Positions 4,906 to 33,162 of a DNA stretch of 64,000 nt are shown one piece after another. The stretch's first letter is position 1, and the number at the start of each line of letters is the position of its first letter. The position numbers and the translations under genes are program-made. The stretch is from Cloacibacillus evryensis DSM 19522 (GTDB lineage Bacteria; Synergistota; Synergistia; Synergistales; Synergistaceae), in the NCBI RefSeq assembly GCF_000585335.1, contig NZ_KK073872.1, forward strand, positions 723,317 through 787,316, given 5' to 3'. Below the pieces are notes generated by a model. The model saw only the letters and a program-made list of their open reading frames with translations. It was not told where the DNA came from and did no database searches.

Positions 4906-4940
4906 AGAACTAATATAAAGTCAAAAAGGAGAAATATGCA

Positions 4941-6146
4941 ATGGCAAAGATCCAAATGAAGACCCCCCTTGTCGAGATGGACGGGGACGAAATGACGCGC
5001 ATTCTCTGGAAGCAGATCAAGGATACTCTGATCCTGCCCTTCGTCGACCTCAAGACGGAGTATTATGACCTCGGACTGAAGCACCGCGACGAGACCGACG
5101 ATAAAATAACGGTCGAATCCGCCGAGGCGACCAAGAAATACGGCGTTGCCGTAAAGTGCGCCACGATCACCCCCAACGCCCAGAGGGTCGAGGAATACAG
5201 CCTCAAGAAGCAGTGGAAGAGCCCCAACGGGACGATCAGGGCCATCCTTGACGGCACCGTCTTCCGCGCGCCGATCATGGTCAAAGGCGTCAGCCCGACG
5301 GTGCGGACGTGGAAGAAGCCACTTACGATCGCGCGTCACGCCTACGGCGACATTTATAAAGATGTGGAGATGAACATCCCCTGCGCGGGAACGCTGAAAA
5401 TGACCTTCGAGCCCTCCGACGGGGACGCCGCGAAGCGTCAGGAAGAGGTCGTCTTTGAATACAAAGGCCCCGGCGTCGCGATGGCGATGCACAATCTGGA
5501 AAAGTCCATCTCCAGCTTTGCGCGCGCCTGCTTCAAATACGCGCTCGACACGAAACAGGACCTCTGGTTCTCGACGAAGGACACGATCTCCAAGAAGTAC
5601 GACCAGACTTTCAAGCTCATCTTTGAGGATGTCTTTGAGAAGGAGTTCAAAGCCGGTTTCGAGAAGGAGGGGATCACTTACTTCTACACGCTGATCGACG
5701 ACGCCGTGGCGCGCGTCATCCGCTCCGAGGGCGGTTTCATCTGGGCCTGCAAAAACTATGACGGAGACGTGATGTCCGATATGGTGGCGACGGCCTTCGG
5801 AAGCCTCGCGATGATGACCTCCGTGCTCGTCTCTCCCGACGGCGTTTACGAGTATGAGGCGGCTCACGGCACCGTCACGCGCCACTACTATCAGCACCTT
5901 GAAGGGAAAGCGACCTCGACGAACCCGATGGCGACGATCTTCGCCTGGAGCGGCGCGCTGCGCAAGCGCGGCGAGCTGGACGGGATAGACGAACTCGTGA
6001 AGTTCGCGGACAAGCTTGAAAAGGCTTCGATCGAAACGATAGAATCGGGGCAGATGACGAAGGACCTTTACGCGATAGCGGAAATTCCGAACAAAAAATC
6101 GCTGACGTCGGCGGAATTTCTTGACGCGATAGCGAAAAAACTTTAA
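4941..6146 (+). CDS. icd: NADP-dependent isocitrate dehydrogenase (eukaryotic-type, subfamily II)
   Basis: 401 residues, matching the homodimeric IDH1/2-like class: [13 protein letters not shown] near the N-terminus, [20 protein letters not shown] for substrate contact, and [11 protein letters not shown] with [11 protein letters not shown] near the C-terminus. It catalyses isocitrate to 2-oxoglutarate plus CO2, or the reverse. AAGGAG lies before the start. It sits between aconitase and citrate lyase, so it probably connects citrate with 2-oxoglutarate and glutamate. No citrate synthase is present in the window. Confidence 0.95.
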
Positions 6147-6576: not shown

Positions 6577-7457
6577 AGGCCAGCCGTTCGATGTTATACA
6601 TCCCGGGAGACGCTCCCGGAATGATCCAGCACGCGCCGATCTTCGGCGCCGACAGCGTGCTGCTGGACCTCGAAGACGCGGTCGCCCTTACGGAAAAGGA
6701 CGGCGCGCGCAGGATGGTCGCCCGTTTCCTTAAAGATTTTGATTTCAAAGATCTTTTTGTAACGGTGCGTATCAACGCCGCGGACACCGAGTTTTTTGAG
6801 GACGACCTTAAAGAGATAATCCCCTGTGCCCCGGAGGCCGTGAGGCTTCCCAAATGCAACGGCCCCGAGGATGTCGTCTCCGCCGATAAAAGGATAAGCG
6901 CGATCGAGGAGCGCTGCGGCATGAGGCACGGCGCGGTCAAAATACACGCGATGATAGAGACGGCGCTGGGGCTGGAGAAGGCTTTCGACACAGCCTCCGC
7001 CTCGCCGCGCGTCACGGCGTTGACCATCGGCGGACAGGACTTTACCGCCGACATGGGAGTGCGTAAGACGAAAGAGGGGCGCGAGCTCTTCTACGCGAGA
7101 TGCAGGGTGGCGGCCGCGGCGCACGCCGCCGGCGTCGACTCATACGATACGGTCTGGGCCGACCTTCAGGACAACGAGGGGCTCCTGCGCGAGACGAAGG
7201 AGATCGTCGGCCTGGGCTTCACGGGCAAAGCCTGCATCCATCCGAGCCAGGTCAGCGTGATACACAAGGCATTCATGCCCGAGGAAAAAGAACTGCGTAA
7301 GGCGATGCGCGTCGTCGAAGCGGCGGAAAAGGCGAAGCGCGAGGGCAAGGGCGTCATCGCGGTCGACGGCAAGATGGTAGACGCTCCCGTTATCGCCCGC
7401 TCCGCCCATCTGCTGGAACTGGCCGAACTCTACGGCTTTGACAGGGAGGCGCTTTAA
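6573..7457 (+). CDS. citE: Citrate lyase beta subunit (citryl-CoA/citryl-ACP lyase)
   Basis: 294 residues from the ATG at 6573, chosen because GGAGGG lies just upstream and because it overlaps the citD stop by four bases. HpcH/HpaI aldolase-family TIM barrel: RSMLYIPGDAPGM at the N-terminus, LLDLEDAVALTEKD for metal binding, VRINAADT, and GFTGKACIHPSQV near the C-terminus. It releases oxaloacetate from citryl-S-ACP. Second gene of citDEF. Confidence 0.93.
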   Translation: MKASRSMLYIPGDAPGMIQHAPIFGADSVLLDLEDAVALTEKDGARRMVARFLKDFDFKDLFVTVRINAADTEFFEDDLKEIIPCAPEAVRLPKCNGPEDVVSADKRISAIEERCGMRHGAVKIHAMIETALGLEKAFDTASASPRVTALTIGGQDFTADMGVRKTKEGRELFYARCRVAAAAHAAGVDSYDTVWADLQDNEGLLRETKEIVGLGFTGKACIHPSQVSVIHKAFMPEEKELRKAMRVVEAAEKAKREGKGVIAVDGKMVDAPVIARSAHLLELAELYGFDREAL

Positions 7458-7458
7458 G

Positions 7459-9021
7459 ATGAAAACAGCAGTAAACTCACTCGGAAGAACAGTCCCGCTC
7501 GAAGTCCCCGGCGTGGGGGCTTTCGCGCCATATTCGACGCCCTTCGGCAGAATATCTTCGCTCGCCGGCCTTTATACAAAACCGCGCACGATCCGCGCGG
7601 CGATGCCCTGCCGCGACAAACGCGCCGCCTCTCTGCGCGCCGCGATCGAAAAATCGGGCCTCACCGACGGCATGACCATCTCCTTCCACCACCACCTCCG
7701 CAACGGAGACGCCGTCATACCCATGGTCCTAGCAGAACTCGAGGCGATGGGCTTCAAAAACCTCACCTTCGCCCCCAGCTCCATACCCGACTCCCACGAC
7801 TGCGTCGCCGACTACATAAAAAGCGGACTCATCGGCAGACTCTACACCTCCGGCGTTCGCGGCAAACTGGGCAAACTCCTCTCCAGCGGCGAAGTAGACA
7901 TCCCCGTCATCATCAGAAGCCACGGCGGCCGCGCCCGCGCCGTCGAAGAGGGCTCCATCAAAATAGACGTCGCCTTCCTCGCCGCCCCCGCCTGCGACTG
8001 CCTCGGCAACATCAACGGCACAGAAGGCCCCTCCGCCTGCGGCTCCCTCGGCTACGCGATAACCGACGCGAAAAACGCCGCCCACGTCATAGCCGTAACC
8101 GACAACCTCGTCCAATACCCCCTCTCGCCGAAAATCTCCATCCCGCAATACCTCGTCGACCAGGTAGTAGTAGTCGGCAGCATCGGAGACCCGGCGAAAA
8201 TAGCCACCGGGGCGGCGCGCATCACGCGCAGCCCCGTAGACCTCCGCATCGCGCAGGACTCCTTCCGGCTCATGAAAGCCGCCGGCATCGTCGAACCCGG
8301 CTTCTCCTTCCAGATGGGAGTCGGCGGAGCGAGCCTAGCCGCCGCCGTCTACCTTGAAGAATACATGGCGGACAAACAAATAACGGGCAGCTTCGGCCTC
8401 GGTGGAGTGGGGGGCTACATGGCGTCCATGCACGACAAAGGCATGTTCAGGACAGTATTCGACGTTCAGTCCTTCGACGCGGCGGTGACAAAATCCATGA
8501 TATCCAACCCGAGCCACATAGAAATAGACGCCTCCTGGTACGCGAACCCCTTCAACGCGGGAGCGCTCGTCAACAACCTCGACTGCGTAATCCTCGCGGC
8601 GCTCGAAGTCGACACAGACTTCAACGTCAACGTCCTAACCGGCAACGACGGAGTGTTGCGCGGAGCCTCCGGAGGGCACCAGGACACGGCGGCGGGAGCG
8701 AAACTCTCGATAATAGTCTGCCCCTCCTTCCGCGGCGGAGTTCCGTCCGTCAAAGACCGGGTGACGACGATAACCACGCCTGGCGAGACAGTGGACGCGA
8801 TCGTGACAGAGCGAGGGATCTGCGTCAACCCGCGCCGCGCGGAACTTCTGGAAGCGGCCCTCAAAGCGAAACTGCCGGTAACGGAAATAACGGAACTCAA
8901 AAAAGAGGTTGAAAAACTGACGGGAGTGCCGGAGCCGATAGAATTCGACTACGGCAAACTGCTTGCCGCCGTGGAATACCGCGACGGAACTCTGATCGAC
9001 GGAGTATACGCGGCGAAGTAG
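7459..9021 (+). CDS. citF: Citrate lyase alpha subunit (citrate:acetyl-ACP transferase)
   Basis: 520 residues, the normal CitF size, starting one base after the citE stop; AGGGAGG upstream supports this ATG. It exchanges the acetyl group on CitD for citrate. The N-terminal GRTVPLEVPGVGAFAPYS and the GASGGHQDTAAGA region match CitF. From about 7700 the third-position pattern changes: lysine, glutamate and isoleucine are nearly always AAA, GAA and ATA, whereas the neighbours prefer AAG, GAG and ATC. The same bias fills nifJ. Confidence 0.95.
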   Translation: MKTAVNSLGRTVPLEVPGVGAFAPYSTPFGRISSLAGLYTKPRTIRAAMPCRDKRAASLRAAIEKSGLTDGMTISFHHHLRNGDAVIPMVLAELEAMGFKNLTFAPSSIPDSHDCVADYIKSGLIGRLYTSGVRGKLGKLLSSGEVDIPVIIRSHGGRARAVEEGSIKIDVAFLAAPACDCLGNINGTEGPSACGSLGYAITDAKNAAHVIAVTDNLVQYPLSPKISIPQYLVDQVVVVGSIGDPAKIATGAARITRSPVDLRIAQDSFRLMKAAGIVEPGFSFQMGVGGASLAAAVYLEEYMADKQITGSFGLGGVGGYMASMHDKGMFRTVFDVQSFDAAVTKSMISNPSHIEIDASWYANPFNAGALVNNLDCVILAALEVDTDFNVNVLTGNDGVLRGASGGHQDTAAGAKLSIIVCPSFRGGVPSVKDRVTTITTPGETVDAIVTERGICVNPRRAELLEAALKAKLPVTEITELKKEVEKLTGVPEPIEFDYGKLLAAVEYRDGTLIDGVYAAK

Positions 9022-9419: not shown

Positions 9420-12400
9420 ATGTCAGAGAAAAAGATGGTAACGCTGGATGGCAACGAAGCTGCGGCGCACGTAGCGCACGCGGTAAACGAAGTGATATCG
9501 ATCTACCCGATCACGCCGTCGTCGCCGATGGGCGAATGGTCGGATCAGTGGTCGGCGGAATCGCGTCCCAACATCTGGGGCACAGTGCCGCTGGTGGAAG
9601 AAATGCAGAGCGAGGCGGGGGCCTCGGGAGCCTACCACGGAGCGCTGCAGGCGGGAGCATTGGGCACCACCTTCACCGCCTCCCAGGGACTCCTGCTCAT
9701 GATCCCCAACATGTACAAAATAGCGGGCGAACTCACCAGCACAGTCATGCACGTAACAGCCAGAAGCGTGGCCGCCCACGCGCTCTCCATCTTCGGAGAC
9801 CACTCCGACGTCATGGCCGTGCGCAACACCGGCTGGGCCATGCTCTCCTCGGCGACAGTGCAGGAATCCATGGACAACGCGCTCATCGCGCAAATGGCGA
9901 CCCTCGAAGGCAAAGTTCCCGTCCTCCACTTCTTCGACGGCTTCCGCACCAGCCACGAAGAAATGAAAATAGAAGAAATCCCCTACGACGCCATGCGCGC
10001 CTGCATAGACGACGACCTCGTGCGCGAACACAGATACAACCGCCTCACGCCCGACGCGCCCTTCATCCGCGGCACCGCGCAAAACCCCGACGTCTTCTTC
10101 CAGTCGATGGAAGGACGCAACCGCTACTACGCCGACATGCCCGACACCGTCCAGCAAGCGATGGACAAATTCGCGAAAACCATAGGCAGACAATACCACC
10201 TCTTCGACTACTACGGCAGCCCCGAAGCCGAGCGAGTCATAATCATCATGGGCTCCGGCGCTGCGGTAGCGCGCGAAGCCGTAGACCGCCTGAACCAAGA
10301 GGGAGAAAAAGTTGGCCTAATAATCGTGCGCCTCTTCCGCCCCTTCGACATCACAAGATTCACAAACGCCCTCCCCGGGACAGTCAAAAAAATAGCCGTC
10401 CTCGACCGCAGCAAAGACCCTGCGGCCAACAGCGAGCCCCTCTGCGCCGACGTCAAAGAAGCCCTCAACGGCTCCGGCATCACCATAGTGGGAGGCCGCT
10501 ACGGCCTCTCCTCCAAAGACTTCACCCCGGCCATGGTCAAAGGAGTCTACGACGAACTCCGCAAACTCGCCCCCAAAGACGGCTTCACCATAGGCATAGA
10601 AGACGACGTCACCTACACCAGCCTCCCCTACGACCCGTCATTCGACACAGAAAACCCCAAAACAGTCAGATGCCTCTTCTACGGCCTCGGCTCAGACGGC
10701 ACAGTGGGAGCCAACAAAAACTCCATCAAAATCATCGGCCAGGAGACGGACCTCTACGCCCAGGGCTACTACAGCTACGACTCCAAAAAATCCGGAGGAA
10801 TAACCGTAAGCCACCTGCGCTTCGGTCCCGACCCCATATACGCCAGCTACCTCATAAACAAAGCCAACTTCCTGGCCTGCCACGTCTACAGCTTCCTCGA
10901 AAAACTCGACATCCTGAAAAACGCGGCAGACGGCGGAACATTCCTCCTCAACGCCCCCTTCGGCCCCGAACAAATCTGGGACAAACTGCCGAAAACATAC
11001 CAGCAAAAAATAATAGACAAACACCTCAAACTCTACGTCATAGACGCCGTTAAAATAGCCAAACAAACAGGCATGGGCTCCCGCACCAACACCATCATGC
11101 AGACCTGCTTCTTCGCCATCAGCGGCATCCTGCCCCAGGACAAAGCCATAAAAGCCATCAAAGACTCAATAATCAAAAGCTACACCAAAAAAGGACAGGC
11201 CATAGTAGACAAAAACATCAAAGCCGTAGACGAGACACTAGCCAACCTCTACCAAGTCAAAGTGCCGGCCGAAGCGACATCCGCCTTCGACATCCTGCCG
11301 CCCGTAGCCGAAGACGCCCCCGAATTCGTCAAACAAATACTCGGCCCCATGATGATAATGGAAGGAGACAGCCTCCCCGTCTCCGCCCTGCCCGAAGACG
11401 GCACCTACCCCAGCGCCACCACCCAATACGAAAAAAGAAACATAGCCATAGACATCCCCGTCTGGGACCCGTCCCTCTGCATCCAATGCGGCAAATGCGT
11501 CCTCGTCTGCCCCCACGCAGCCATAAGAGCCAAAGTCTACGCCCCCGAAAAACTCGAACAGGCGCCGGCAGCATTCAGACACGCCCAAGCCAAATTCCCC
11601 AACTTCAAAGACTATGACTTCACCATCCAGACCGCGCCCGAAGACTGCACCGGCTGCGGCCTCTGCGCGGCCAACTGCCCCATAAACAAAACCAAAGCCG
11701 AAGACCCGCACCGTCCGCTCATCATGCGCACCCAAATGCCCATAAGAGAGACAGAAAAAGCAAACTGGAACTACTTCCTCAGCCTGCCCGAAACATACAA
11801 AGCCAAACTCAACACAGCGACAGTCAAAGACGTCCAACTCCTGAGACCCCTCTTCGAATTCTCGGGAGCCTGCGCGGGCTGCGGAGAAACCCCCTACCTC
11901 AAACTCCTCTCCCAACTCTTCGGAGACAGAGCCATAATCGCCAACGCCACCGGCTGCTCCTCGATATACGGAGGCAACCTCCCCACCACCCCGTGGGCGG
12001 TAAACGACCAGGGCAGAGGGCCGGCATGGAGCAACTCCCTCTTTGAAGACGCGGCAGAATTCGGCCTCGGCTTCCGCCTCACCATAGACAAACACAGAGA
12101 ATACGCGGCTGAACTGCTCACCAAAATGACCCCCGAACTGGGAGAACAGACAGTCAGAGAAATACTTGACGCGCCGCAGACCACCGGCGAACAAATCAAA
12201 GCCGTAACAGACAAAATAGACCGCCTCAAAGAACAACTCTGCTGCATAGAGACACAACAGGCAGAAGAACTCGAATCAGTCATAGACAACCTCGCCAAAA
12301 AATCAGTCTGGTGCGTGGGAGGAGACGGCTGGGCCTACGACATCGGCTACGGGGGACTCGACCACGTAATAGCCAGCGGCAAAAACGTCAACATCCTTGT

Positions 12401-12953
12401 ACTTGACACCGAAGTCTACTCCAACACCGGAGGGCAGGCCTCCAAATCCACGCCGAGAGGAGCCGTGGCCAAATTCGCTGCGGCCGGCAAACGCATGGGC
12501 AAAAAAGACCTTGCCATGATGGCCATGAGCTACGGCAGCGTCTACGTGGGGAAAGTGGCATTGGGAGCCAACGACGCGCACACAGTCAAAGTCTTCCAGG
12601 AAGCCGAAGCCTACGAGGGACCGTCCATAATAATCGCCTACTGCCACTGCATAGCGCACGGCATAGACATGGTCAAAGGACTTGACCAGCAGAAAAAAGC
12701 GGTAGACTCGGGCCACTGGATGCTCATGAGATACAACCCCGACCTGGCGAAAGAGGGCAAAAACCCGCTCGTCATAGACTCCAAAGAGCCGAGCCTGCCC
12801 CTTGAAGACTACATCTACAACGAAGTGAGATACAAAAGCCTCAAAGCGACGGCCCCCGAAGAGGCTGCGCAGCTGCTCGAAGAAGAGAAAAAAGCCATTG
12901 CCGACAGATGGAGATTCTACAGGCATATGGCTGAGATGAAGATGGAGGGGTAA
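9420..12953 (+). CDS. nifJ: Pyruvate:ferredoxin (flavodoxin) oxidoreductase
   Basis: 1177 residues, the normal length of one-chain PFOR. In order: the pyrimidine-binding domain (SIYPITPSSPMGEW near the start), the CoA-binding region, a two-cluster ferredoxin domain (C687/690/693/697 and C743/746/749/753), the proximal-cluster pair C818/C821 in GACAGCGE, and the TPP site GDGWAYDIGYGG with NTGGQASKSTPRGA. It converts pyruvate plus CoA to acetyl-CoA, CO2 and reduced ferredoxin. The ATG at 9420 follows GGGAGGAA. Codon use is strongly biased (AAA, GAA, ATA with C-ending otherwise), which fits high expression. Confidence 0.97.
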   Translation: MSEKKMVTLDGNEAAAHVAHAVNEVISIYPITPSSPMGEWSDQWSAESRPNIWGTVPLVEEMQSEAGASGAYHGALQAGALGTTFTASQGLLLMIPNMYKIAGELTSTVMHVTARSVAAHALSIFGDHSDVMAVRNTGWAMLSSATVQESMDNALIAQMATLEGKVPVLHFFDGFRTSHEEMKIEEIPYDAMRACIDDDLVREHRYNRLTPDAPFIRGTAQNPDVFFQSMEGRNRYYADMPDTVQQAMDKFAKTIGRQYHLFDYYGSPEAERVIIIMGSGAAVAREAVDRLNQEGEKVGLIIVRLFRPFDITRFTNALPGTVKKIAVLDRSKDPAANSEPLCADVKEALNGSGITIVGGRYGLSSKDFTPAMVKGVYDELRKLAPKDGFTIGIEDDVTYTSLPYDPSFDTENPKTVRCLFYGLGSDGTVGANKNSIKIIGQETDLYAQGYYSYDSKKSGGITVSHLRFGPDPIYASYLINKANFLACHVYSFLEKLDILKNAADGGTFLLNAPFGPEQIWDKLPKTYQQKIIDKHLKLYVIDAVKIAKQTGMGSRTNTIMQTCFFAISGILPQDKAIKAIKDSIIKSYTKKGQAIVDKNIKAVDETLANLYQVKVPAEATSAFDILPPVAEDAPEFVKQILGPMMIMEGDSLPVSALPEDGTYPSATTQYEKRNIAIDIPVWDPSLCIQCGKCVLVCPHAAIRAKVYAPEKLEQAPAAFRHAQAKFPNFKDYDFTIQTAPEDCTGCGLCAANCPINKTKAEDPHRPLIMRTQMPIRETEKANWNYFLSLPETYKAKLNTATVKDVQLLRPLFEFSGACAGCGETPYLKLLSQLFGDRAIIANATGCSSIYGGNLPTTPWAVNDQGRGPAWSNSLFEDAAEFGLGFRLTIDKHREYAAELLTKMTPELGEQTVREILDAPQTTGEQIKAVTDKIDRLKEQLCCIETQQAEELESVIDNLAKKSVWCVGGDGWAYDIGYGGLDHVIASGKNVNILVLDTEVYSNTGGQASKSTPRGAVAKFAAAGKRMGKKDLAMMAMSYGSVYVGKVALGANDAHTVKVFQEAEAYEGPSIIIAYCHCIAHGIDMVKGLDQQKKAVDSGHWMLMRYNPDLAKEGKNPLVIDSKEPSLPLEDYIYNEVRYKSLKATAPEEAAQLLEEEKKAIADRWRFYRHMAEMKMEG

Positions 12954-23376: not shown

Positions 23377-23464
23377 GGAGAGTTGTCCGAGTGGTCTATG
23401 GTGATTGACTTGAAATCAATTGGGTGTCACAGCCCCGGGGGTTCGAATCCTCCACTCTCCGCCA
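23377..23464 (+). tRNA. tRNA-Ser(UGA)
   Basis: 88 nt including an encoded CCA. The acceptor stem GGAGAGT pairs with ACTCTCC, the anticodon loop CTTGAAA gives UGA, a long variable arm (GGGTGTCACAGCCCC) is typical of serine tRNAs, and the T loop GTTCGAATCC is intact. The last 16 bases serve as attachment site for the integrated DNA downstream. Confidence 0.97.
23449..23464 (+). repeat. att1: 3' end of tRNA-Ser, left attachment site
   Basis: CCTCCACTCTCCGCCA, the 3' half of the T stem plus the acceptor stem and CCA. Exact copies lie at 31782-31797 and 32983-32998. With 31781-31798 the identity extends to 18 bp (TCCTCCACTCTCCGCCAA). Confidence 0.9.
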
Positions 23465-23476
23465 AGCCTTTATTGA

Positions 23477-23508: not shown

Positions 23509-23561
23509 AATAGGAATTATAGCCGTTTCAAAGAGCATGTACAAGTGAGGAATTGACTTGT

Positions 23562-25376
23562 ATGCAGAACATTACAAAACGTTCACAGAATGACTACATC
23601 TTTCAGAACAATACAAGGCTGTATTTCCGCCAATCAATACCGCCTGACTTACGTCCAATATTCAAAAAGACTGAAATAAGAATATCGTTAAGGACGCCTG
23701 ACAAAAGGCTTGCTAAACGTAAAGCCGCCGTGCTATCGTCTCATATCTGGGACATCATGACGGCGCTTAGAAAAGGGGATAAGAGAATGACCGAACTGTC
23801 GACAGAACAAATTTACCAACTTGTTAAGACGTGGGTAGACAAAGAGCTTGCAGACGATGAAGCGGGGCGGGCGCTTAGTGTTGTAAACGGGAAGACAACT
23901 ATAAGTAATGAAGAAATGATTGGCTACGCTAATGAAATGCACTCGACAATACAAAGTGACTGCCGTGAAGCGTTGGCAACAGAGAATTATTCCTATGGCT
24001 CACCGGGGGCGGAATCTATTATTGAAGATAACGACTTGTCTATATCTCCTGATTCACAAGAATATAAAGCGCTATGCCGTGAGGTCATCAAGGCTCAATA
24101 TGAGTTGTGTAACGTCATGAAACAGCGTAACAGCGGTAAATATCCAGAGACCTATACCAGCACGGCGGTAAATCCAGTCTTGTACAATCAAAATGTAAAA
24201 CAATCGAACGTACAGAAGAAGCAACAGAACAAGTTCAGTACTGCATTTCAAGAGTATGTCGCAGAGAAGAAACTAAAGGGTAATTGGACGCCTAAAACGG
24301 TATTAGACGCGACGGCAAAGGTCAATATCTTCATTGAGATAATAGGCGATATAAAGCTTTGCGACATTACGCAAGAGAAAATGAAAGAAGCTGAACGGCT
24401 TATATTGAAGTATCCAAGCAGTAGGACTAAGAAGAAACAATATAAGGACATACCATATTCACAGTTAAAGAAGATGGATATACCAGAAACAGACAGGTTC
24501 AGCCATAAGAGTATTGAGAATTACATGATACAGGTAAACGGGTTCTTGAAATGGCTCAAGCCTATGTATGAAATGCCGGAATGGTTGCCTGTAATTATGT
24601 CTGCACCTAAAGCCGACGTAACACAAGATACAACGGCGTCTAAGGACATCTGGACAACAGAGGAATTGAGGAAGATATTCAATGACCCGGCCTATATTCA
24701 AGGCGAGAAAACAACTTCAACTAGTAATACGCGCAAGAAATACACCGGCGCGATATTCTGGCTGCCTTTAATGGCGCTGTACAGCGGCGCAAGGCCGGAG
24801 GAATTATGCGGCCTGTATTTGTCGGACTTTAAAGTCATTGATGAAGTTAAATGTTATCAGTTGACGCCTTGCATTGAAGATGAGGAGGGTAATCTTGTTA
24901 AAGCAAAGCGTATCAAGAATACAGCGTCGCGGCGTATCGTTCCTATTCACGACGAACTGTTGAAGTTAGGGCTATGGGAATATGTGCAGGAGTTGAAAGA
25001 ACAAGGTCATGCAAGACTCTTTGATGAACTAGCCGCAAGCGGTGCAGACCAGCGCTATAGTACTGGATATACGAAATGGTTTAACAGATATGTCAGTCAG
25101 ACATTATTAATCAAGGGAAGCAAACAAAAGGGCGCAAAGGTATTTTATTCGTTCCGACATACGTTTATAAATTATTGTGTACAAAATTCGTTGAGGGATA
25201 TTTACTTTGAACGAGTTGTCGGTCATGCGGTTCAAGGGAACGAGTCAACCTTGAAGCATTACGCTAAACCTATTTCACCACGGATATTAAAGGCGGAAGT
25301 AATCGACAGGGTGAATTTCGATGTAGACCTGTCATCGCTAAAGAATAATCCGTTTTCGCGGTCTATGAAAGGGTAA
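23562..25376 (+). CDS. int: Tyrosine recombinase / integrase with N-terminal DUF6538-like region
   Basis: 604 residues. The N-terminus (YIFQNNTRLYFRQSIPPDLR) is of the DUF6538 type, followed by a SAM-like core-binding domain (about 220-330) and the catalytic domain: R411 in SGARPEELCGL, Arg532-His533 in SFRHTF, GH in VVGHAVQ, and nucleophile Y567 in LKHYAK. The residue three before Arg532, usually His in HxxR, is Tyr (FYSFRH). The ATG at 23562 was chosen because GTGAGG lies 11 nt upstream; a TTG at 23553 is too close to it. It is the first gene after the tRNA and should integrate and excise the element. Confidence 0.92.
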   Translation: MQNITKRSQNDYIFQNNTRLYFRQSIPPDLRPIFKKTEIRISLRTPDKRLAKRKAAVLSSHIWDIMTALRKGDKRMTELSTEQIYQLVKTWVDKELADDEAGRALSVVNGKTTISNEEMIGYANEMHSTIQSDCREALATENYSYGSPGAESIIEDNDLSISPDSQEYKALCREVIKAQYELCNVMKQRNSGKYPETYTSTAVNPVLYNQNVKQSNVQKKQQNKFSTAFQEYVAEKKLKGNWTPKTVLDATAKVNIFIEIIGDIKLCDITQEKMKEAERLILKYPSSRTKKKQYKDIPYSQLKKMDIPETDRFSHKSIENYMIQVNGFLKWLKPMYEMPEWLPVIMSAPKADVTQDTTASKDIWTTEELRKIFNDPAYIQGEKTTSTSNTRKKYTGAIFWLPLMALYSGARPEELCGLYLSDFKVIDEVKCYQLTPCIEDEEGNLVKAKRIKNTASRRIVPIHDELLKLGLWEYVQELKEQGHARLFDELAASGADQRYSTGYTKWFNRYVSQTLLIKGSKQKGAKVFYSFRHTFINYCVQNSLRDIYFERVVGHAVQGNESTLKHYAKPISPRILKAEVIDRVNFDVDLSSLKNNPFSRSMKG

Positions 25377-26355: not shown

Positions 26356-27243
26356 ATGACAAACACACTACAGATATTTGAAAACCATAACTTTGGCTCA
26401 ATCCGCACCGTCCTTGACGAGAGCGGCAAAGCGCTATTCTGCGGCAAAGACATAGCGGAAGCGTTGGGATACAGCAATACGAAGGACGCCCTAATTAGAC
26501 ATTGCAAGGGGGTCGTGAAACGCGACCTAGGGGTAGTAACAGGGAAAAAGGCAGACGGCACAGACGCAATACAAAATGTTGCAGTCTCATTCATCCCAGA
26601 AGGCGACGTCTACCGTCTCATAGTCCGTTCTAACCTTCCATCCGCAGAAAAGTTTGAACACTGGGTATTTGACGAAGTGCTTCCGGCAATCCGCAAGACA
26701 GGCGGTTATATCACCTCCACACCGGACGACAGCGACGCTGACATCATTGCCCGGGGATATCGGGCGGCTATAGCGGCCATAGAACGCAAAGACCAGACCA
26801 TAGCAGCCTTGGAAGCTCAGAGAGAAGAGGCCGCGCCGTATACAGACCTCGGCAGGGCAGTTTCAGAGAAGGCCGGATACATGCTTATCTCCAAAGCGGC
26901 GGTCATAATGGCTCAGGCCGGTTGCATGTTCACCGTGCAGGAGACGGGGGAACGCCGGATTATCGGTGTGCAGTACCTCCGAATCTACCTTGAACAGAAA
27001 GAATTTATCGTGAAGCGCGGTCGTTCCGACGCCGGGAGGCCGACAATCAAAGGACAGAAATACCAGCGCGTACAGATGAAAGCGTCGCCGCTTGAATGCG
27101 GGGCCGTGGCATATTCCCCGGTGTTGTCGTCGGACTTTGTGAAGATGCTGATAAAAATGTTCCACAAGAAAGAAATGGTCTTGCCGAAAATCGTCAAGAA
27201 CGACCGCAAGGCAAAGCAGAATGACGAAGAGGATACAACATAG
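26356..27243 (+). CDS. Phage antirepressor (BRO-N plus KilAC domains)
   Basis: 295 residues. The BRO N-terminal domain covers about 1-115 (FGSIRTVLDESGKALFCGKD, IAEALGYSNTKDALIRHCKG, FEHWVFDEVLPAIRKTGGYI), followed by a coiled linker (AAIAAIERKDQTIAALEAQR) and a C-terminal KilAC/ANT-like winged helix (about 160-250, with QEFIV-like EQKEFIVKRG). Antirepressors bind phage repressors or DNA and trigger the lytic programme. AGAGGGAG precedes the ATG. This is the clearest phage-derived gene in element 1. Confidence 0.88.
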   Translation: MTNTLQIFENHNFGSIRTVLDESGKALFCGKDIAEALGYSNTKDALIRHCKGVVKRDLGVVTGKKADGTDAIQNVAVSFIPEGDVYRLIVRSNLPSAEKFEHWVFDEVLPAIRKTGGYITSTPDDSDADIIARGYRAAIAAIERKDQTIAALEAQREEAAPYTDLGRAVSEKAGYMLISKAAVIMAQAGCMFTVQETGERRIIGVQYLRIYLEQKEFIVKRGRSDAGRPTIKGQKYQRVQMKASPLECGAVAYSPVLSSDFVKMLIKMFHKKEMVLPKIVKNDRKAKQNDEEDTT

Positions 27244-28023: not shown

Positions 28024-28057
28024 AATGTAACTTTTTGTTACTCATTGATGTGAACCG

Positions 28058-28082
28058 GGGGCCCTGTTATGGGGCCCCTTTT
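28058..28082 (+). terminator. Terminator of the antirepressor region
   Basis: GGGGCCC (28058-28064) pairs with GGGCCCC (28072-28078), followed by TTTT. It separates the protein genes from the repeat array. Confidence 0.85.
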
Positions 28083-28094
28083 AGTTTTTATAGG

Positions 28095-28549
28095 CTACGA
28101 CAGGGAAAAAGTTTACATTCGACCTAAGAAAGGATAAGGCAGTCTACGACCGGGAAAAAGTTTGGTGCCCACCTAAGAAAGGATAAAGCGCCACACGGCA
28201 CGGCTGGCCCTTTGGTATTACTGGCTTAAAAAATACCCTGACCTAAGAAAGGAAAAGGCAGTCTGTCACCGGCTAAAGTTTACCCTGCATCTAAGAAAGG
28301 ATAAAGCAACCAGCACGGCGTAGATAGAACCTTGCTATGACCGGGAAAAAGTTTACGTTGTACCTAAGAAAGGATAAAGCAAACGAAAAACTCACGGTGG
28401 AGAGCCAAAAAACTGTTGCTACCACCGGGAAAAAGTTTGCCCACCACCTATGAAAGGATAAAGCAACCGGGATAATTACAACGGAAAGTCGCAAAACTGT
28501 TGCTACCACCGGGAAAAAGTTTACGGTGCACCTATGAAAGGATAAAGCA
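28095..28549 (+). repeat. Seven 47-nt direct repeats with a variable 9-nt centre
   Basis: Copies start at 28095, 28144, 28214 (diverged), 28263 (46 nt), 28335, 28419 and 28503. The left arm is close to ACCGGGAAAAAGTTT, the right arm to CTAAGAAAGGATAAAGCA. Between them the nine bases differ in every copy: acattcgac, ggtgcccac, taccctgac, accctgcat, acgttgtac, gcccaccac, acggtgcac. Distances between starts are 49, 70, 49, 72, 84 and 84. There is no open frame through the array. It lies between a terminator and a very AT-rich stretch, the layout of an iteron-type replication origin, but regulatory or RNA roles are possible. Confidence 0.85.
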
Positions 28550-28674
28550 GCAACACGACGACACAGCGCCGCAAGGCGTCACACAGCGCAACGACAGCTT
28601 TCATTACGACACGCAACATCAACGACCTACACGTCATAATGATATGGTAAATCCTATTATCAATCACAAGTTTT

Positions 28675-29515
28675 GGGGGGTTCTTGTGGATTCAGACCTT
28701 GATAATGGGGGGTAGGGGGGTTTTGAAAAACCTTAAAATAATAATTAGTTTAATATAGGTTAATAATATGAACCTTACTGGATTATTATATAAAAGACAA
28801 TAGGTTAATAAGAGAATTATAGAATCTTCTTTAATAAAGAAAGTTCTTATAATGTTCTATTATTATTTTATTGTTAATCTATATAATGCTATTCTGGTGT
28901 AAGTTGTTATTATGATCCTATAATTACGGTTTTGACTTTAAGGTTTTAAACTATAAGAACTTATATAAATATCTCAAAGAATAGTAAACTGAATTATAGA
29001 GTTTGAGAAAAGATATATAGAGCTATAAATTCCTTCTCAAACCTATAAAAGCGATTACGACACATTGAGTAACAGATATAAAGAATCCATCGGGAAGACA
29101 GATCAAGGTCAAGAACAAGGGATGGGTTCTTGATAACATTATCTCTTAATAGCTCTTTATGGCGTCGTATCTCGCCCTGCTGTCGCGGTGCTCGTAAAAG
29201 ATAAAACATAGCGTCTTGGCTCGCCCTGCTGTCGCAGGACTCGTATTAGCTTCACAGCGCCATATATCAACGTGTCGTAAACACTTTAGAGCTCTCATAA
29301 AATTCTTTAAAAGCTCTTTTAACGCTCTGGGTTTCTTTCAGAGGGATTACTGCCCACAATTTTATCATGCAATTTCAAAAAGTCAATACATATAGTATGC
29401 TTATACAACAAAAATAGGTCTATTAGACCATATTATAATTTACTGCTAGACAACTATTCGTATACCGTGCTATCTTTTAGGCGTTACAGCTACAAGCAGT
29501 CAGCATATCCACCAG
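28675..29515. other. AT-rich gene-free stretch with three G6 runs
   Basis: It opens with three GGGGGG runs (28675, 28707, 28715) and then becomes extremely AT-rich to about 29090 and again around 29280-29470. No protein gene is credible; the minus-strand frame at 28994-29209 has no ribosome site. With the adjacent repeats it could be an unwinding element of an origin. It also holds the repeat pair at 29171. Confidence 0.6.
29171..29235 (+). repeat. Direct repeat pair with small hairpins
   Basis: CTCGCCCTGCTGTCGC occurs at 29171-29186 and 29220-29235, 49 bp apart. The second copy folds as CCTGC-TGTC-GCAGG, the first less perfectly. Both are preceded by GCGTC and followed by CTCGTA. Confidence 0.6.
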
Positions 29516-29674: not shown

Positions 29675-29704
29675 GGTAGTCCCCCATTACGGGGGCTACC
29701 TTTT
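29675..29704 (+). terminator. Terminator before the Cys-rich small gene
   Basis: GGTAGTCCCCC (29675-29685) pairs with GGGGGCTACC (29691-29700) with one bulged base, followed by TTTT. It closes whatever is transcribed from the AT-rich stretch. Confidence 0.8.
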
Positions 29705-29753: not shown

Positions 29754-29939
29754 ATGACAACACCACAGCACCGCATGGCGCAGCCATTATCCACACTGGA
29801 AGCCTGCAAAGGCTGTATTCACGACTGTAAGATATCCAGCCTCAACGGCGCGGCGCTCGTATGCTGTCCGAAATACAGGGCGGTAAAGAGGCGGCGGACG
29901 TCTCAGGCAGCAGACAAAGCACCGCATGGCGCGGCCTGA
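29754..29939 (+). CDS. Small Cys-rich protein, possible zinc ribbon
   Basis: 61 residues. CKGCIHDC and CCPKY give a CxxCx3C...CC pattern that could bind zinc or an iron-sulfur cluster; the C-terminal part is Arg/Lys-rich (AVKRRRTSQAADK). AGGAGGAAAG lies upstream of the ATG. No family recognised. Followed within 90 nt by another gene with an equally strong ribosome site, so probably the same transcript. Confidence 0.6.
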   Translation: MTTPQHRMAQPLSTLEACKGCIHDCKISSLNGAALVCCPKYRAVKRRRTSQAADKAPHGAA

Positions 29940-30028: not shown

Positions 30029-30427
30029 ATGACGACAGAAATTGAAGAAAGAACCAACGGAATGACGGAAGCAGAGACAGAAGCAACGGAAACAGAGACA
30101 TGGGACATATCGGACGAAGAAGCCGAAGCCCGCGCGAAGCACAGCAATGAAGGTCTGGCAGACGACTATATTTACAACATACGCTCTGGAATTGGACAGC
30201 TGACACGTGATTGTGAAGACCCGAAAATAAGGGTTGTTCTGCTTAACCTCTTGCGTTTTGCTGAGGAAACATACGACCAGACACTGACGCCGACAGTCAA
30301 AGAGTTCAGCGCTGAATATCCTGACGGCGTCGAACTTCCTAACTTTGCGCGGCACTTTGATATATTGTCCTCGTTGGAATCCTGCACGACTGACGTATAT
30401 TTTCCAGAAGACAGCCGCTTTTGTTAG
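30029..30427 (+). CDS. Acidic hypothetical protein of element 1
   Basis: 132 residues, the first 50 very Glu/Thr-rich (TEAETEATETETWDISDEEA) and likely disordered, then a helical domain (IRVVLLNLLRFAEETYDQTL). AGGAGGT lies 8-9 nt before the ATG. A good terminator follows. Strong negative charge is typical of DNA mimics and of phage accessory proteins, but no function can be assigned. Confidence 0.62.
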   Translation: MTTEIEERTNGMTEAETEATETETWDISDEEAEARAKHSNEGLADDYIYNIRSGIGQLTRDCEDPKIRVVLLNLLRFAEETYDQTLTPTVKEFSAEYPDGVELPNFARHFDILSSLESCTTDVYFPEDSRFC

Positions 30428-30575: not shown

Positions 30576-30755
30576 AAATCTGAGGGGGTATCTCCTAGCT
30601 CTGCGGCGGCGCTGTCCCCCCGGGCGGGCGCGCGGCTGGACGTGAAGGAATGCAGACAATGGCTGGACGTGCTGGCAACCGCGCCAGGCGACGACCACGG
30701 CGATGCTTAAGCTGCGGCCCGGGCGATGCTGGAGGTCACGACCTCAACGCTATAG
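30576..30755 (+). pseudogene. GC-rich gene fragment with an internal stop
   Basis: An open frame without start reads SPSSAAALSPRAGARLDVKE, then CRQWLDVLATAPGDDHGDA, a TAA at 30708-30710, and continues in the same frame with AAARAMLEVTTSTL to TAG at 30753-30755. The coding style and the high GC contrast with the rest of element 1. It looks like the end of a protein interrupted by one nonsense change (for example CAA to TAA). Family not recognised. Its tail overlaps the end of the opposing recombinase gene by a few bases. A 22-codon frame at 30515-30583 just before it is probably chance. Confidence 0.45.
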
Positions 30756-31322
30756 GTTCAGATTGAGATAGACGTTATCCAGATCGTCCCTTGTGATTCC
30801 AATATACGACAGTGTGATTGCCGGGCTGGAATGATTCAACAGCTTTTGAATGACCGATAAATCCATTCCCATTTTATAGGCGTGGTAGCCAAAGGTCTTT
30901 CGCATGGTGTGAGTTCCTATAGCGTCTTTGTCCAGCCCCGAATGAGCGGCGGCATCGTTGAGTATCCTCCACGCCTGAACCCTCGTTATGGCCGCCGTGC
31001 CCTTACGGGACGGGAACAGATAAGCCAACGGCTCTTTTGTATTGAGCGATGACAGGTGTTCTCTGATCGCCTTGCCTGCCGTATCGCTGATGGGAAAGTC
31101 TTTAGCCTTACCGGTCTTCTGTTCAGTGAGATGAATCCTGTCTTTGAGCTTGCCGCTGTCGTCTTCAACATCTTTGACCTGTAGATTAAGAAGGTCGGAT
31201 ATCCGTAAACCTGAGTTAATGCCCAGGACGAAGAGGCAATAGTCGCGGGTGCTTTTCTCTTTGAGATACTTTTTCATTCTGTCGATCTTCTTTGTGTCGC
31301 GTATAGGCTCTACAAGTTCCAT
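30750..31322 (-). CDS. Small tyrosine recombinase
   Basis: 190 residues from the ATG at 31322 (GAAGGA upstream). It is essentially a catalytic domain without a full core-binding domain: Arg in NSGLRISDLLNL, HxxRK in GTHTMRKTFGY, LLNHSS, and the Tyr in ITLSYIGI. Such short recombinases occur on plasmids and phages, often as resolvases or invertases of repeats. It stands at the far end of element 1 and reads inward, opposite to the main integrase. Confidence 0.9.
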   Translation of the reverse strand: MELVEPIRDTKKIDRMKKYLKEKSTRDYCLFVLGINSGLRISDLLNLQVKDVEDDSGKLKDRIHLTEQKTGKAKDFPISDTAGKAIREHLSSLNTKEPLAYLFPSRKGTAAITRVQAWRILNDAAAHSGLDKDAIGTHTMRKTFGYHAYKMGMDLSVIQKLLNHSSPAITLSYIGITRDDLDNVYLNLNL

Positions 31323-31780
31323 GATAAAATCCTTCCTTTGCTTCACTGAGTTGTGTTTTGTAAAAATTTTCTTGAATGTTATTCAATAGCTAGATTATAC
31401 ATATTATGTTACATTTAAGCAAGAGGGAATTTTTATCTGATTTTAGAAAAGTGGCATAAGCGATGTCTACCACTGGATAAATTGGCATTCTGCGAATGTA
31501 ACACAATAGCATTGTGTTTCACCGCTCGAATTAAGGAATGTCGTTTGGCATGTATGAATAAAATTATATCAATATTATAATATCGATTTAAACTTCTGTC
31601 TTTGCTTATTTGTTTTTTCGCTTGCCTTTTTCGTGCTTTTCGGTATCATAGCAAATATGAGTAACCGCGATAGAAACGGAAGCTCAAATTTTAAGTACAG
31701 GCTCTAAGCAACGAATATAAGCGCACGGAAAAGTGAGTCAGGGACGGGGTTTATCTGAATTGTATTAGGTAACAGGTTGT
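31323..31780. promoter_or_regulatory. Upstream region of the small recombinase with a palindrome
   Basis: 458 bp without a gene. AACACAAT (31500-31507) and ATTGTGTT (31511-31518) form a 19-nt palindrome, a likely operator for a recombinase or excision regulator. The rest is AT-rich up to the att2 site. Confidence 0.4.
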
Positions 31781-31798
31781 TCCTCCACTCTCCGCCAA
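31781..31798 (+). repeat. att2: internal attachment site
   Basis: TCCTCCACTCTCCGCCAA, identical over 18 bp to the tRNA-Ser 3' end. It is the right end of element 1 and the left end of the toxin-antitoxin island. Confidence 0.88.
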
Positions 31799-31841
31799 TA
31801 TGCTTTCTCTAGCTTGCTGCAAGCTATTGCTCAACCTTTGA

Positions 31842-31877
31842 AACCCCTGCTATAATCAGTCTGGCAGGGGGTTTTCT
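31842..31877 (+). terminator. Terminator after att2
   Basis: AACCCCTGC (31842-31850) pairs with GCAGGGGGTT (31864-31873), followed by TTCTT. It would stop transcription of tRNA-Ser if element 2 were next to the gene. Confidence 0.78.
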
Positions 31878-31934
31878 TATTTACGGGGGTGCTCCAGGCC
31901 GCTCTTGATTTTTCCATCCTGCATTTGTGAAAGT

Positions 31935-31986
31935 GTTACGTAAATTACTGTTTTGGGTAACGCAAAAATGTTTTGAGTTACGCAAA
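31935..31986 (+). repeat. Three short direct repeats (GTTACGCAAA type)
   Basis: GTTACGTAAA (31935), GTAACGCAAA (31957) and GTTACGCAAA (31977), spaced 22 and 20 bp; the first two are followed at similar distance by TGTTTTG. About two helical turns apart, they could be an operator or short iterons. They precede a non-coding, apparently degenerate stretch up to 32188, in which a 33-codon frame (FDILPVVKGLDNAVYQTQYG...) may be a relic. Confidence 0.5.
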
Positions 31987-32188
31987 GGAGGATGCGGATT
32001 GCTGACAGCTGGGTTTACCTTGAAGCCCTGCCGATATAACCGCCTTTGATATTCTGCCTGTTGTAAAAGGGCTGGACAATGCGGTGTATCAGACTCAGTA
32101 CGGAGTATCTTGGGGGATCTGTGGTTGGATTCTCCGCTAAGGGATGCCTCCTGTGGTGTGGATACTGTGAGTTGCGGGCAATATCCGG

Positions 32189-32239
32189 TATAATAACTTA
32201 AAAGTTATTGCACGTTAATTACTTTTAAGTTATTATAAT
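32189..32239 (+). promoter_or_regulatory. Promoter/operator of the toxin-antitoxin pair
   Basis: Two TATAAT boxes (32189-32194 and 32234-32239) are interleaved with two symmetric sites, AATAACTTAAAAGTTATT (32192-32209) and AATTACTTTTAAGTTATT (32217-32234). Paired AT-rich palindromes over a promoter are the usual target of autorepressing HigA-type antitoxins. Confidence 0.7.
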
Positions 32240-32255
32240 GCTGTGAGGTGTTGTT

Positions 32256-32621
32256 ATGGCGTTTGAGATTATTTTTTACCGGGACAGGCAGGGGCGCGAA
32301 CCGGTTCTTGAGTATATTCAAGCGCTGGACGGCAAAAAGGATAAGGACAGCCGCATAAATGTCAACAAGATATATGATTATCTTGATTTTTTAAGTCAGG
32401 TTGGGACGTCGGCGGGCGAGCCTTATGTAAAACATCTTGACGGCGAGATACTGGAGCTTCGGCCTTTAAGAAACAGGCTGCTTTTCGCGGCATGGAACGG
32501 CAGCGGCTTTATTATTCTTCATCACTTCATAAAGAAAACTCAGAAGACGCCTCGGCGCGATATTGAACAGGCAAAGAGGAATTTGGCCGATTACAGAGAA
32601 AGGAGCGATCTCAATGAGTGA
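32256..32621 (+). CDS. higB: RelE/HigB-family toxin
   Basis: 121 residues of the phage Gp49-like/HigB type: FEIIFYRDRQGREPVLEYIQ, then VKHLDGEILELRPLRNRLLF and FIILHHFIKKTQKTPRRDIE. Such toxins cut mRNA at the ribosome. Toxin-first order, with the antitoxin start overlapping its last codons, is the HigBA arrangement. GTGAGGTG lies upstream. Confidence 0.88.
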   Translation: MAFEIIFYRDRQGREPVLEYIQALDGKKDKDSRINVNKIYDYLDFLSQVGTSAGEPYVKHLDGEILELRPLRNRLLFAAWNGSGFIILHHFIKKTQKTPRRDIEQAKRNLADYRERSDLNE

Positions 32622-32910
32622 AAAAGCTATCAGCCCAAAGGGGCGCAGCTGGAGCGAGGTGCGCGAGCAGATTTTGACGCCAGAGGAGAGGGGCGTGTCC
32701 AATCTGCGAGTCGCGATGATGGTTGAATTGGCCGCCGCGAGGGCGGAGAAGGGCATTTCACAGAAAAAACTCGAGGCTTTGAGCGGCGTAAAACAGCCTG
32801 TTATCGCGCGTATGGAGAAGGGATATACCAGCCCGCAGCTGGATACTGTCCTTAAGGTTTTGGCCCCTTTGGGCAAGACTCTTTATATAGGGGATCTGCC
32901 GAGGGCGTAG
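32614..32910 (+). CDS. higA: XRE-family antitoxin
   Basis: 98 residues from the ATG at 32614, overlapping the toxin stop by 8 nt, with AGGAGCG upstream. The HTH lies at about 45-80 (AARAEKGISQKKLEALSGVK, QPVIARMEKGYTSPQLDTVL). It should neutralise the toxin and bind the palindromes at 32192-32234. The N-terminal tail (MSEKAISPKGRSWSEVREQI) probably wraps the toxin. Confidence 0.88.
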   Translation: MSEKAISPKGRSWSEVREQILTPEERGVSNLRVAMMVELAAARAEKGISQKKLEALSGVKQPVIARMEKGYTSPQLDTVLKVLAPLGKTLYIGDLPRA

Positions 32911-32982
32911 GTACTTTCGGCAATAACTTATAGATAGCGTAAAGATTCTGTGTTCTTCGACGGGGATTTTTCGTTTTCTTAG

Positions 32983-32998
32983 CCTCCACTCTCCGCCA
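32983..32998 (+). repeat. att3: right attachment site
   Basis: CCTCCACTCTCCGCCA, the third exact copy of the tRNA-Ser 3' end. Chromosomal flank, including a tRNA-type terminator, follows. Confidence 0.88.
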
Positions 32999-33009
32999 TA
33001 GCATATCAA

Positions 33010-33041
33010 GCCTTACAAACACGGAGTTTGTGAGGCTTTTT
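33010..33041 (+). terminator. Terminator after att3 (probably the original tRNA-Ser terminator)
   Basis: GCCTTACAAAC (33010-33020) pairs with GTTTGTGAGGC (33026-33036), then TTTTT. It differs by only a few bases from the one after att1. Confidence 0.82.
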
Positions 33042-33162
33042 ATTTTTTCTGTTGAATACTCCTTGAAAATCGAAAGGAAATAAAGATAACTTTAGTGTTT
33101 ATGCAGCGCCAGTCAACATGGCGGCCGCCATGGGGTATGAATAAAGTTAATATTCCCCCTTT

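What the first reader, a model, noticed from the sequence alone, without database searches (positions are those of the whole stretch)
28095..28549. Array of seven 47-nt repeats with a different 9-nt centre in each
Conserved arms (ACCGGGAAAAAGTTT and CTAAGAAAGGATAAAGCA) surround nine bases that are unique in every copy, while distances between copies vary. Conserved arms around a variable core are unlike simple tandem duplication. Options are iterons of an origin (AT-rich DNA follows), a set of small RNAs or protein-binding RNA units, or recombination sites for the small recombinase at 30750.
Basis: seen in the sequence. Interest (0 to 1): 0.75.

Follow-up and report, generated by a model that had tools for sequence, protein, structure and literature searches.

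The report
Array of T7-like phage promoters, varied specificity
A small mobile DNA element in a Synergistaceae bacterium carries seven near-identical docking sites, which look like start signals for the RNA polymerases of T7-like viruses and differ in just the few letters that decide which polymerase fits; if so, the element may have been built to be switched on, or copied, by several different viruses.

Summary
The array is real: six full units and one with a degraded left arm, 28093-28549, in an 8.3-kb tRNA-Ser element (att repeats 23448-23465 and 31781-31798). The same units occur in only one other genome of 188 in the phylum, in a related tRNA-Thr element. A third related element (contig NWBO01000048.1, which also carries a T7-like internal virion protein gene) has its own array in the same non-coding stretch. 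Those units are the top hits of a matrix built only from T7, T3, SP6, K11 and gh-1 promoters. One class of them recurs exactly once in 101 genomes, in the window's own chromosome, just downstream of a T7-like gp16 gene remnant. Window units resemble that array (1/400 permutations). The most variable five bases of each unit fall on -11..-7, the specificity positions of T7-type promoters. A strong terminator precedes the array and an AT-rich stretch follows it, as at the T7 primary origin. Neither array-bearing genome encodes a T7-type polymerase. Best reading: a bank of T7-type promoters with different specificities, served by infecting phages, probably to activate or replicate the element. The direct match of window units to known promoters is not significant on its own. 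RNA, recombination-site and coding readings fit poorly; an iteron origin remains the main rival.

The parts
23448..23465 (+). attL-like repeat: 3' end of tRNA-Ser (tRNA 23377-23464), TCCTCCACTCTCCGCCAA
   Evidence: exact repeat with 31781-31798; tRNA by ARAGORN
23553..25376 (+). tyrosine integrase, 607 aa (DUF6538 N-terminal domain)
   Evidence: Pfam; 53% identical to the integrase at the left end of the C48 contig
26356..27243 (+). BRO/anti-repressor protein, 295 aa
   Evidence: Pfam Bro-N 3.5e-21; PHROG anti-repressor Ant; 54% identical in C48
27345..27893 (+). 182-aa protein of unknown function, remote homologues at the same place in C48 (160 aa) and G001 (190 aa)
28057..28088 (+). strong intrinsic terminator directly upstream of the array
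   Evidence: 10-pair stem, T-rich tail, -18.8 kcal/mol
28093..28141 (+). unit 1; +1 = 28128; -11..-7 = ATTCG
28142..28190 (+). unit 2; +1 = 28177; -11..-7 = TGCCC
28212..28260 (+). unit 3 (left arm degraded); +1 = 28247; -11..-7 = CCCTG
28260..28308 (+). unit 4; +1 = 28295; -11..-7 = CCTGC
28333..28381 (+). unit 5; +1 = 28368; -11..-7 = GTTGT
28417..28465 (+). unit 6; +1 = 28452; -11..-7 = CCACC
28501..28549 (+). unit 7; +1 = 28536; -11..-7 = GGTGC
28558..29278 (.). ACGACRC sites (28558+, 28606+, 29057+, 29162-, 29272-) around the AT-rich tract; 5 seen, 0.57 expected; same motif arrayed beside an AT-rich tract in the T7-like prophage G188:C121
   Evidence: motif found post hoc
28690..29060 (.). 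AT-rich tract (73-80% A+T per 100 nt over its middle), candidate unwinding region
29676..29704 (+). hairpin terminator between array and the next genes
29754..29939 (+). 61-aa Cys-containing ORF conserved in C48 (63% over 49 aa)
30029..30427 (+). 132-aa protein of unknown function, 61% identical to the 125-aa gene that follows the array in C48
   Evidence: no usable fold obtained
30750..31346 (-). small tyrosine recombinase, right end of the element
   Evidence: Pfam; 82% identical at the right end of both relatives
31781..31798 (+). attR-like repeat, right end of the element

Best explanation
The array is a bank of tandem promoters for T7-type (single-subunit) phage RNA polymerases, all pointing the same way. 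It sits behind a terminator and ahead of an AT-rich tract, inside an integrated satellite-like element that has no such polymerase of its own. In each unit the conserved left arm is the AT-rich -22..-13 recognition region. The variable centre is the -11..-7 specificity region. The conserved right arm is the melting and start region (YAC-CTAA-G(+1)AAAGGATAAA). Because the centres differ, the bank would answer to several phage polymerases rather than one. When a T7-like phage infects, its polymerase would fire the matching promoter; the transcript would express the downstream genes and/or prime replication of the element at the AT-rich tract, as tandem promoters do at the T7 primary origin. Shown here: the anatomy, the related elements, the promoter-like identity of the C48 units, and the absence of a resident polymerase. 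Inferred: that the window units are functional promoters, that different centres mean different polymerases, and the activation or replication role.
For: (1) A related element (C48, L093; integrase, BRO, 160/182-aa and 125/132-aa genes and recombinase in the same order as the window island) has an array at 12140-12480 in the corresponding non-coding stretch. Its units rank 1, 2, 5, 7 and 10 among all positions for a matrix made only from T7, T3, SP6, K11 and gh-1 promoters. 0 of 500 shuffles reach its count of high-scoring sites, and 0 of 400 column permutations reach its profile score. (2) C48 carries a T7-like internal virion protein (PHROG 6651; 28% identical to that of Desulfovibrio phage ProddE). 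(3) The template AWTA-N5-CAYTATAAGARG from C48 has one exact match in 101 genomes. It lies in the window's own chromosome at 1494308 (+), 3' of a T7-like gp16 remnant and directly after a terminator, and carries the TGGTG class seen in C48. (4) The window/G001 array profile matches the C48 array profile (1/400 permutations). (5) With +1 set by this alignment, the lowest-information block of the window units is exactly -11..-7, the stretch given as the T7 specificity region in PMC10138996. That paper also found polymerases with similar promoters to be nearly fully orthogonal. (6) A terminator precedes the array, an AT-rich tract follows, and all units share one orientation. (7) No T7-type RNAP gene in G000 or G001.
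Against: Scored directly against known T7-family promoters, the window units are not significant (65/400 permutations; best rank 46 in the window): -4..-1 is CTAA, not TATA. C48's own matrix does not rank the window units at the top. Conservation reaches about +11, further than a promoter needs. No helper phage with a matching promoter set was found. In G001 the AT-rich tract lies upstream of the array, not downstream. A single polymerase that ignores -11..-7 is not excluded. Shared centres between the two genomes are not above chance.
Confidence: 0.5

Rival explanations
1. Origin iterons: the units are binding sites for a replication initiator (of the element, the host or a helper phage), and the AT-rich tract is where the DNA opens. 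The variable centre is a spacer that is not contacted.
For: Direct repeats in one orientation beside a 73-80% AT tract; ACGACRC sites around the tract also occur in a T7-like prophage; no single long open frame covers the array.
Against: No initiator gene found in the element; unit spacing is irregular; it does not explain why the related C48 units score as T7-family promoters.
Confidence: 0.25
2. T7-type promoters for one polymerase only, with relaxed requirements at -11..-7; the diversity of centres is neutral drift after duplication.
For: Units 5-7 are tandem duplicates; centres and spacers both diverged; centre sharing between genomes is not significant.
Against: Known T7-type polymerases discriminate at -11..-7 (PMC10138996); the TGGTG centre of C48 recurs exactly beside an independent gp16 remnant.
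Confidence: 0.12
3. Recombination sites for the small recombinase at 30750 or the integrase (shufflon- or integron-like).
For: A tyrosine recombinase lies 2.2 kb away, and one lies near the array side in all three elements; a variable core between conserved arms is reminiscent of crossover sites.
Against: Arms are not inverted repeats of one another; the recombinase family is widespread without such arrays; the segments between units are only tens of bases and hold no cassette genes.
Confidence: 0.03
4. A set of small structured or guide RNAs, or protein-binding RNA units (type III antitoxin-like, CRISPR/TIGR-like).
For: Short variable segments between conserved repeats.
Against: Single units and the whole array fold no better than shuffles (z about 0 to 1.6; unit 7 alone -1.5); no Rfam match above threshold; no toxin or effector gene adjoining the array in the window; irregular spacing.
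Confidence: 0.04
5. Decayed coding repeats (TTGKKFTxxLRKDKA).
For: The frame TTGKKFT..LRKDKA reads through several units, and the 84-nt period is a multiple of three.
Against: Stops and frameshifts between units, spacings of 49, 70, 48 and 73, and arms conserved at the nucleotide level while the spacers diverge.
Confidence: 0.03

Closest known systems
T7-type (Autographiviridae) RNA polymerase promoters: T7, T3, SP6, K11, gh-1
   Same: AT-rich upstream block, a 5-nt specificity block at -11..-7, A at -6, G at +1; the C48 units match the family significantly
   Different: Window units have CTAA at -4..-1, conservation to about +11, seven tandem copies, and a different specificity block in each
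T7 primary origin of replication (tandem promoters phi1.1A and phi1.1B plus AT-rich region; described from memory)
   Same: Tandem, same-direction promoter-like units next to an AT-rich tract
   Different: Seven units instead of two, no polymerase, primase or DNA polymerase found in the element, AT tract on the other side in G001
Phage satellites (PICI, PLE, PICMI, tycheposons; from memory)
   Same: Small tRNA-integrated element with integrase, anti-repressor and no structural genes; dependence on a phage function inferred
   Different: Known satellites are triggered by phage proteins or activators (from memory); no satellite induced through helper-polymerase promoters was found in the literature searched
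Iteron origins (lambda ori, plasmid iterons)
   Same: Direct repeats beside AT-rich DNA
   Different: No initiator gene; irregular spacing; variable core

Membership tests
T7-type phage promoters (window units) | Significant match to the known promoter consensus, -17 to +6 | tested here: inconclusive
   65/400 permutations reach the score; best array rank 46 in the window. The related C48 units do match (0/400; 0/500).
T7-type phage promoters (window units) | Specificity differences confined to -11..-7 between conserved blocks | tested here: met
   Lowest-information block is -11..-7, P = 0.00065 under column permutation
T7-type phage promoters (window units) | A cognate single-subunit RNA polymerase | tested here: not met
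   None in the element, the host genome or G001; one would have to come from an infecting phage. A T7-type RNAP exists in another recombinase-bearing element of the C48 metagenome bin (L048).
T7-type phage promoters (window units) | Transcription starts at +1 | not testable with these tools
   Needs an experiment
T7-type phage promoters (C48 units) | Same motif at a promoter position in a T7-like phage | tested here: met
   Only exact template match in 101 genomes lies just after a gp16 remnant and a terminator
Phage satellite | Own integrase and defined att ends | tested here: met
   18-nt repeat at tRNA-Ser; the G001 relative has a 19-nt repeat at tRNA-Thr
Phage satellite | Lacks a full set of virion genes | tested here: met
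   No structural gene among the ORFs of the window element that were scanned
Phage satellite | Mobilised or replicated by a helper phage | not testable with these tools
   No helper known; a defective prophage is equally possible
Iteron replication origin | Cognate initiator gene | tested here: not met
   None found
Tyrosine-recombinase site array (shufflon, integron) | Inverted-repeat core arms | tested here: not met
   Arms are not inverted repeats
Type III antitoxin RNA | Toxin gene directly downstream, near-uniform tandem repeats | tested here: not met
   No toxin ORF in the window after the array; irregular spacing

The most novel reading that the evidence does not exclude
A natural multi-key receiver: a satellite or anti-phage element that carries a bank of T7-type promoters with different specificities, so that whichever T7-like phage infects the cell, its own RNA polymerase switches the element on (and may prime its replication). 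The specificity letters diversify while the rest of the promoter is kept.
Probability: 0.3. Interest if true: 0.88.

Novelty: new variant of a known kind. Interest (0 to 1): 0.66.

Why it matters
If the reading holds, it is a record of the polymerase specificities of T7-like phages that a bacterial lineage has met, kept as a promoter bank. It would be a new way for a satellite or defence island to sense many helper phages without any sensor protein. It would also supply ready-made promoters with which to find the phages and their polymerases in a phylum with few known phages, and sets of orthogonal promoters. Even in the weaker reading, it identifies T7-like phage promoters and a family of tRNA-integrated elements in Synergistaceae.

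Tried and rejected
RNA structure and Rfam: nothing. Exact and degenerate pattern searches of viral contigs gave mostly single, chance-like hits, and one contig had two matches on opposite strands 3 kb apart. blastn against phages and plasmids: no match. Arrays near other relatives of the recombinase: none of this kind. L039 is coding repeats and L038 has 11-nt AT-rich iterons. The 182-aa and 132-aa proteins and the C48 internal virion protein gave no viral-contig relatives. Shared centres between genomes as evidence for a common phage set: not significant, P about 0.09. A hit in G101:C158 sharing one centre lies inside a NusB-like gene, so chance. CRISPR spacers beside the gp16 remnant do not match the fetched elements. 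Promoters of the T7-like prophage G188:C121 could not be recognised. AlphaFold of the 132-aa protein failed (pLDDT 47). sigma70 reading: TTTAC..GATAAA spacing is loose and the left hexamer is lost in three G001 units (from sequence). CsrA-type GGA motifs: lost in G001 units (from sequence).

Full report
OBSERVATION. The window holds six complete units and a seventh with a degraded left arm between 28093 and 28549, all on the + strand. The arms are nearly invariant. The centre differs in every unit, and five consecutive positions carry almost no information (P = 0.00065 under column permutation). The last three units form an 84-nt tandem repeat, but their spacers and centres have diverged far more than their arms. 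The array occurs once in the 3.49-Mb chromosome. A sequence model of the unit finds it in only one other of 188 Synergistota genomes (G001, same genus; five units).

WHERE IT SITS. The array lies in an integrated element of about 8.3 kb: attL at the 3' end of tRNA-Ser (23448-23465) and the same 18 nt at 31781-31798. The element encodes a DUF6538 integrase, a BRO/anti-repressor, a 182-aa protein, a 61-aa and a 132-aa protein, and a small tyrosine recombinase. The relative in G001 lies at a tRNA-Thr with a 19-nt repeat at its two ends. It has the same layout plus adhesin and OmpH-like genes, a transposon and a ToxN-like gene. A third relative, contig NWBO01000048.1 ("C48"; L093, L119, L047), has the integrase, BRO, 160-aa and 125-aa homologues and recombinase in the same order. 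C48 also encodes a 1447-aa T7-like internal virion protein.

WHAT THE UNITS ARE. C48 has an array of seven units (12140-12480) in the corresponding non-coding stretch, with cores such as CAATA-GGGAC-CACTATAAGAAGG and ATTA-CCACG-CATTATAAGAGAG. No shuffle of 500 reached the number of high-scoring sites, and no permutation of 400 reached the profile score. As an independent check, the C48 template AWTA-N5-CAYTATAAGARG has exactly one exact match in 101 genomes. It is in the window's own chromosome at 1494308, on the coding strand, about 270 nt after the end of a T7-like gp16 remnant and immediately after a terminator. It carries the TGGTG centre found in two of the C48 units. So C48-type units are very probably promoters of T7-like phages.

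The window/G001 units resemble the C48 units (1 of 400 permutations). When +1 is placed accordingly, their variable core is exactly -11..-7, the stretch described as the specificity region of the T7 promoter (PMC10138996). That paper reports nearly full orthogonality among T7-like polymerases with very similar promoters. The conserved left arm is then the AT-rich recognition block and the right arm the melting and start region. The array is preceded by a strong terminator (28057-28088) and followed by about 370 nt of AT-rich DNA. ACGACRC sites around that AT-rich tract recur beside an AT-rich tract in a T7-like prophage of a more distant Synergistota genome (the motif was found post hoc). No T7-type polymerase gene exists in either array-bearing genome, so one would have to come from an infecting phage. 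A T7-type polymerase does occur in another element with the same recombinase (L048).

MECHANISM. The best-supported reading is a bank of T7-type promoters with different specificities in a satellite-like element, fired by the polymerase of an infecting phage. It would drive the downstream genes and/or transcription-primed replication at the AT-rich tract. The promoter-like identity of the C48 units and the anatomy are shown. The promoter activity of the window units, the link between centre and polymerase, and the biological role are inferred.

LIMITS. Scored directly against known promoters the window units do not stand out (65/400; CTAA at -4..-1), so they are not filed here as members of the promoter family. 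No helper phage was found. Centres shared between the two genomes are not above chance. An iteron origin remains the main rival, and a defective prophage cannot be told from a satellite. The genus is not named by the tools. C48 comes from a metagenome bin labelled Bacteroidales, so its true host is uncertain.

LITERATURE. Searches of open papers found no satellite or island described as induced through helper-polymerase promoters, though the library is incomplete.

Noticed in passing
L020 (G001) 6985-7660: ToxN/AbiQ-like protein (weak Pfam and PADLOC matches) preceded by two ~52-nt repeats and a hairpin: a candidate type III toxin-antitoxin system downstream of the G001 promoter-like array.
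   Followed up: partly
L020 (G001) 3495-5056: Nucleotidyltransferase resembling lincosamide resistance Lnu(C) beside an IS1595-like transposase, inserted in the G001 element (identification from memory).
   Followed up: no
window 31781-33042: A further partial att copy at 32983-32998 (and 33026-33042) encloses a Gp49/HigB-like and an HTH gene (32256-32910): a second small insertion stacked on the same tRNA-Ser site.
   Followed up: partly
L220 (own genome, G000:C1 ~1490600-1493400): A CRISPR array of about 43 repeats adjoins the T7-like gp16 remnant; its spacers match none of the fetched elements.
   Followed up: partly
L093 12003-12134: A second repeat family (GGTCTACATCAAGGGGGA, six copies, 18-nt period) just before the promoter-like array of C48.
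   Followed up: no
window 29159-29245: Two 38-nt copies, 49 nt apart, each with a CCTGCTGTCGCAGG-type hairpin, on the right flank of the AT-rich tract.
   Followed up: no
L038 7438-7909 (Acetomicrobium): Phased 11-nt repeats (CTAAGTTATAC) in AT-rich DNA downstream of a relative of the small recombinase.
   Followed up: no
L219 4560-4710 (G188:C121): Tandem ACGACRC-type repeats beside an AT-rich tract after gp16 in a T7-like prophage; a candidate phage origin.
   Followed up: partly
L048 791-6962: Tiny element: integrase, T7-type RNA polymerase and the small recombinase, with no virion genes recognised between them.
   Followed up: partly
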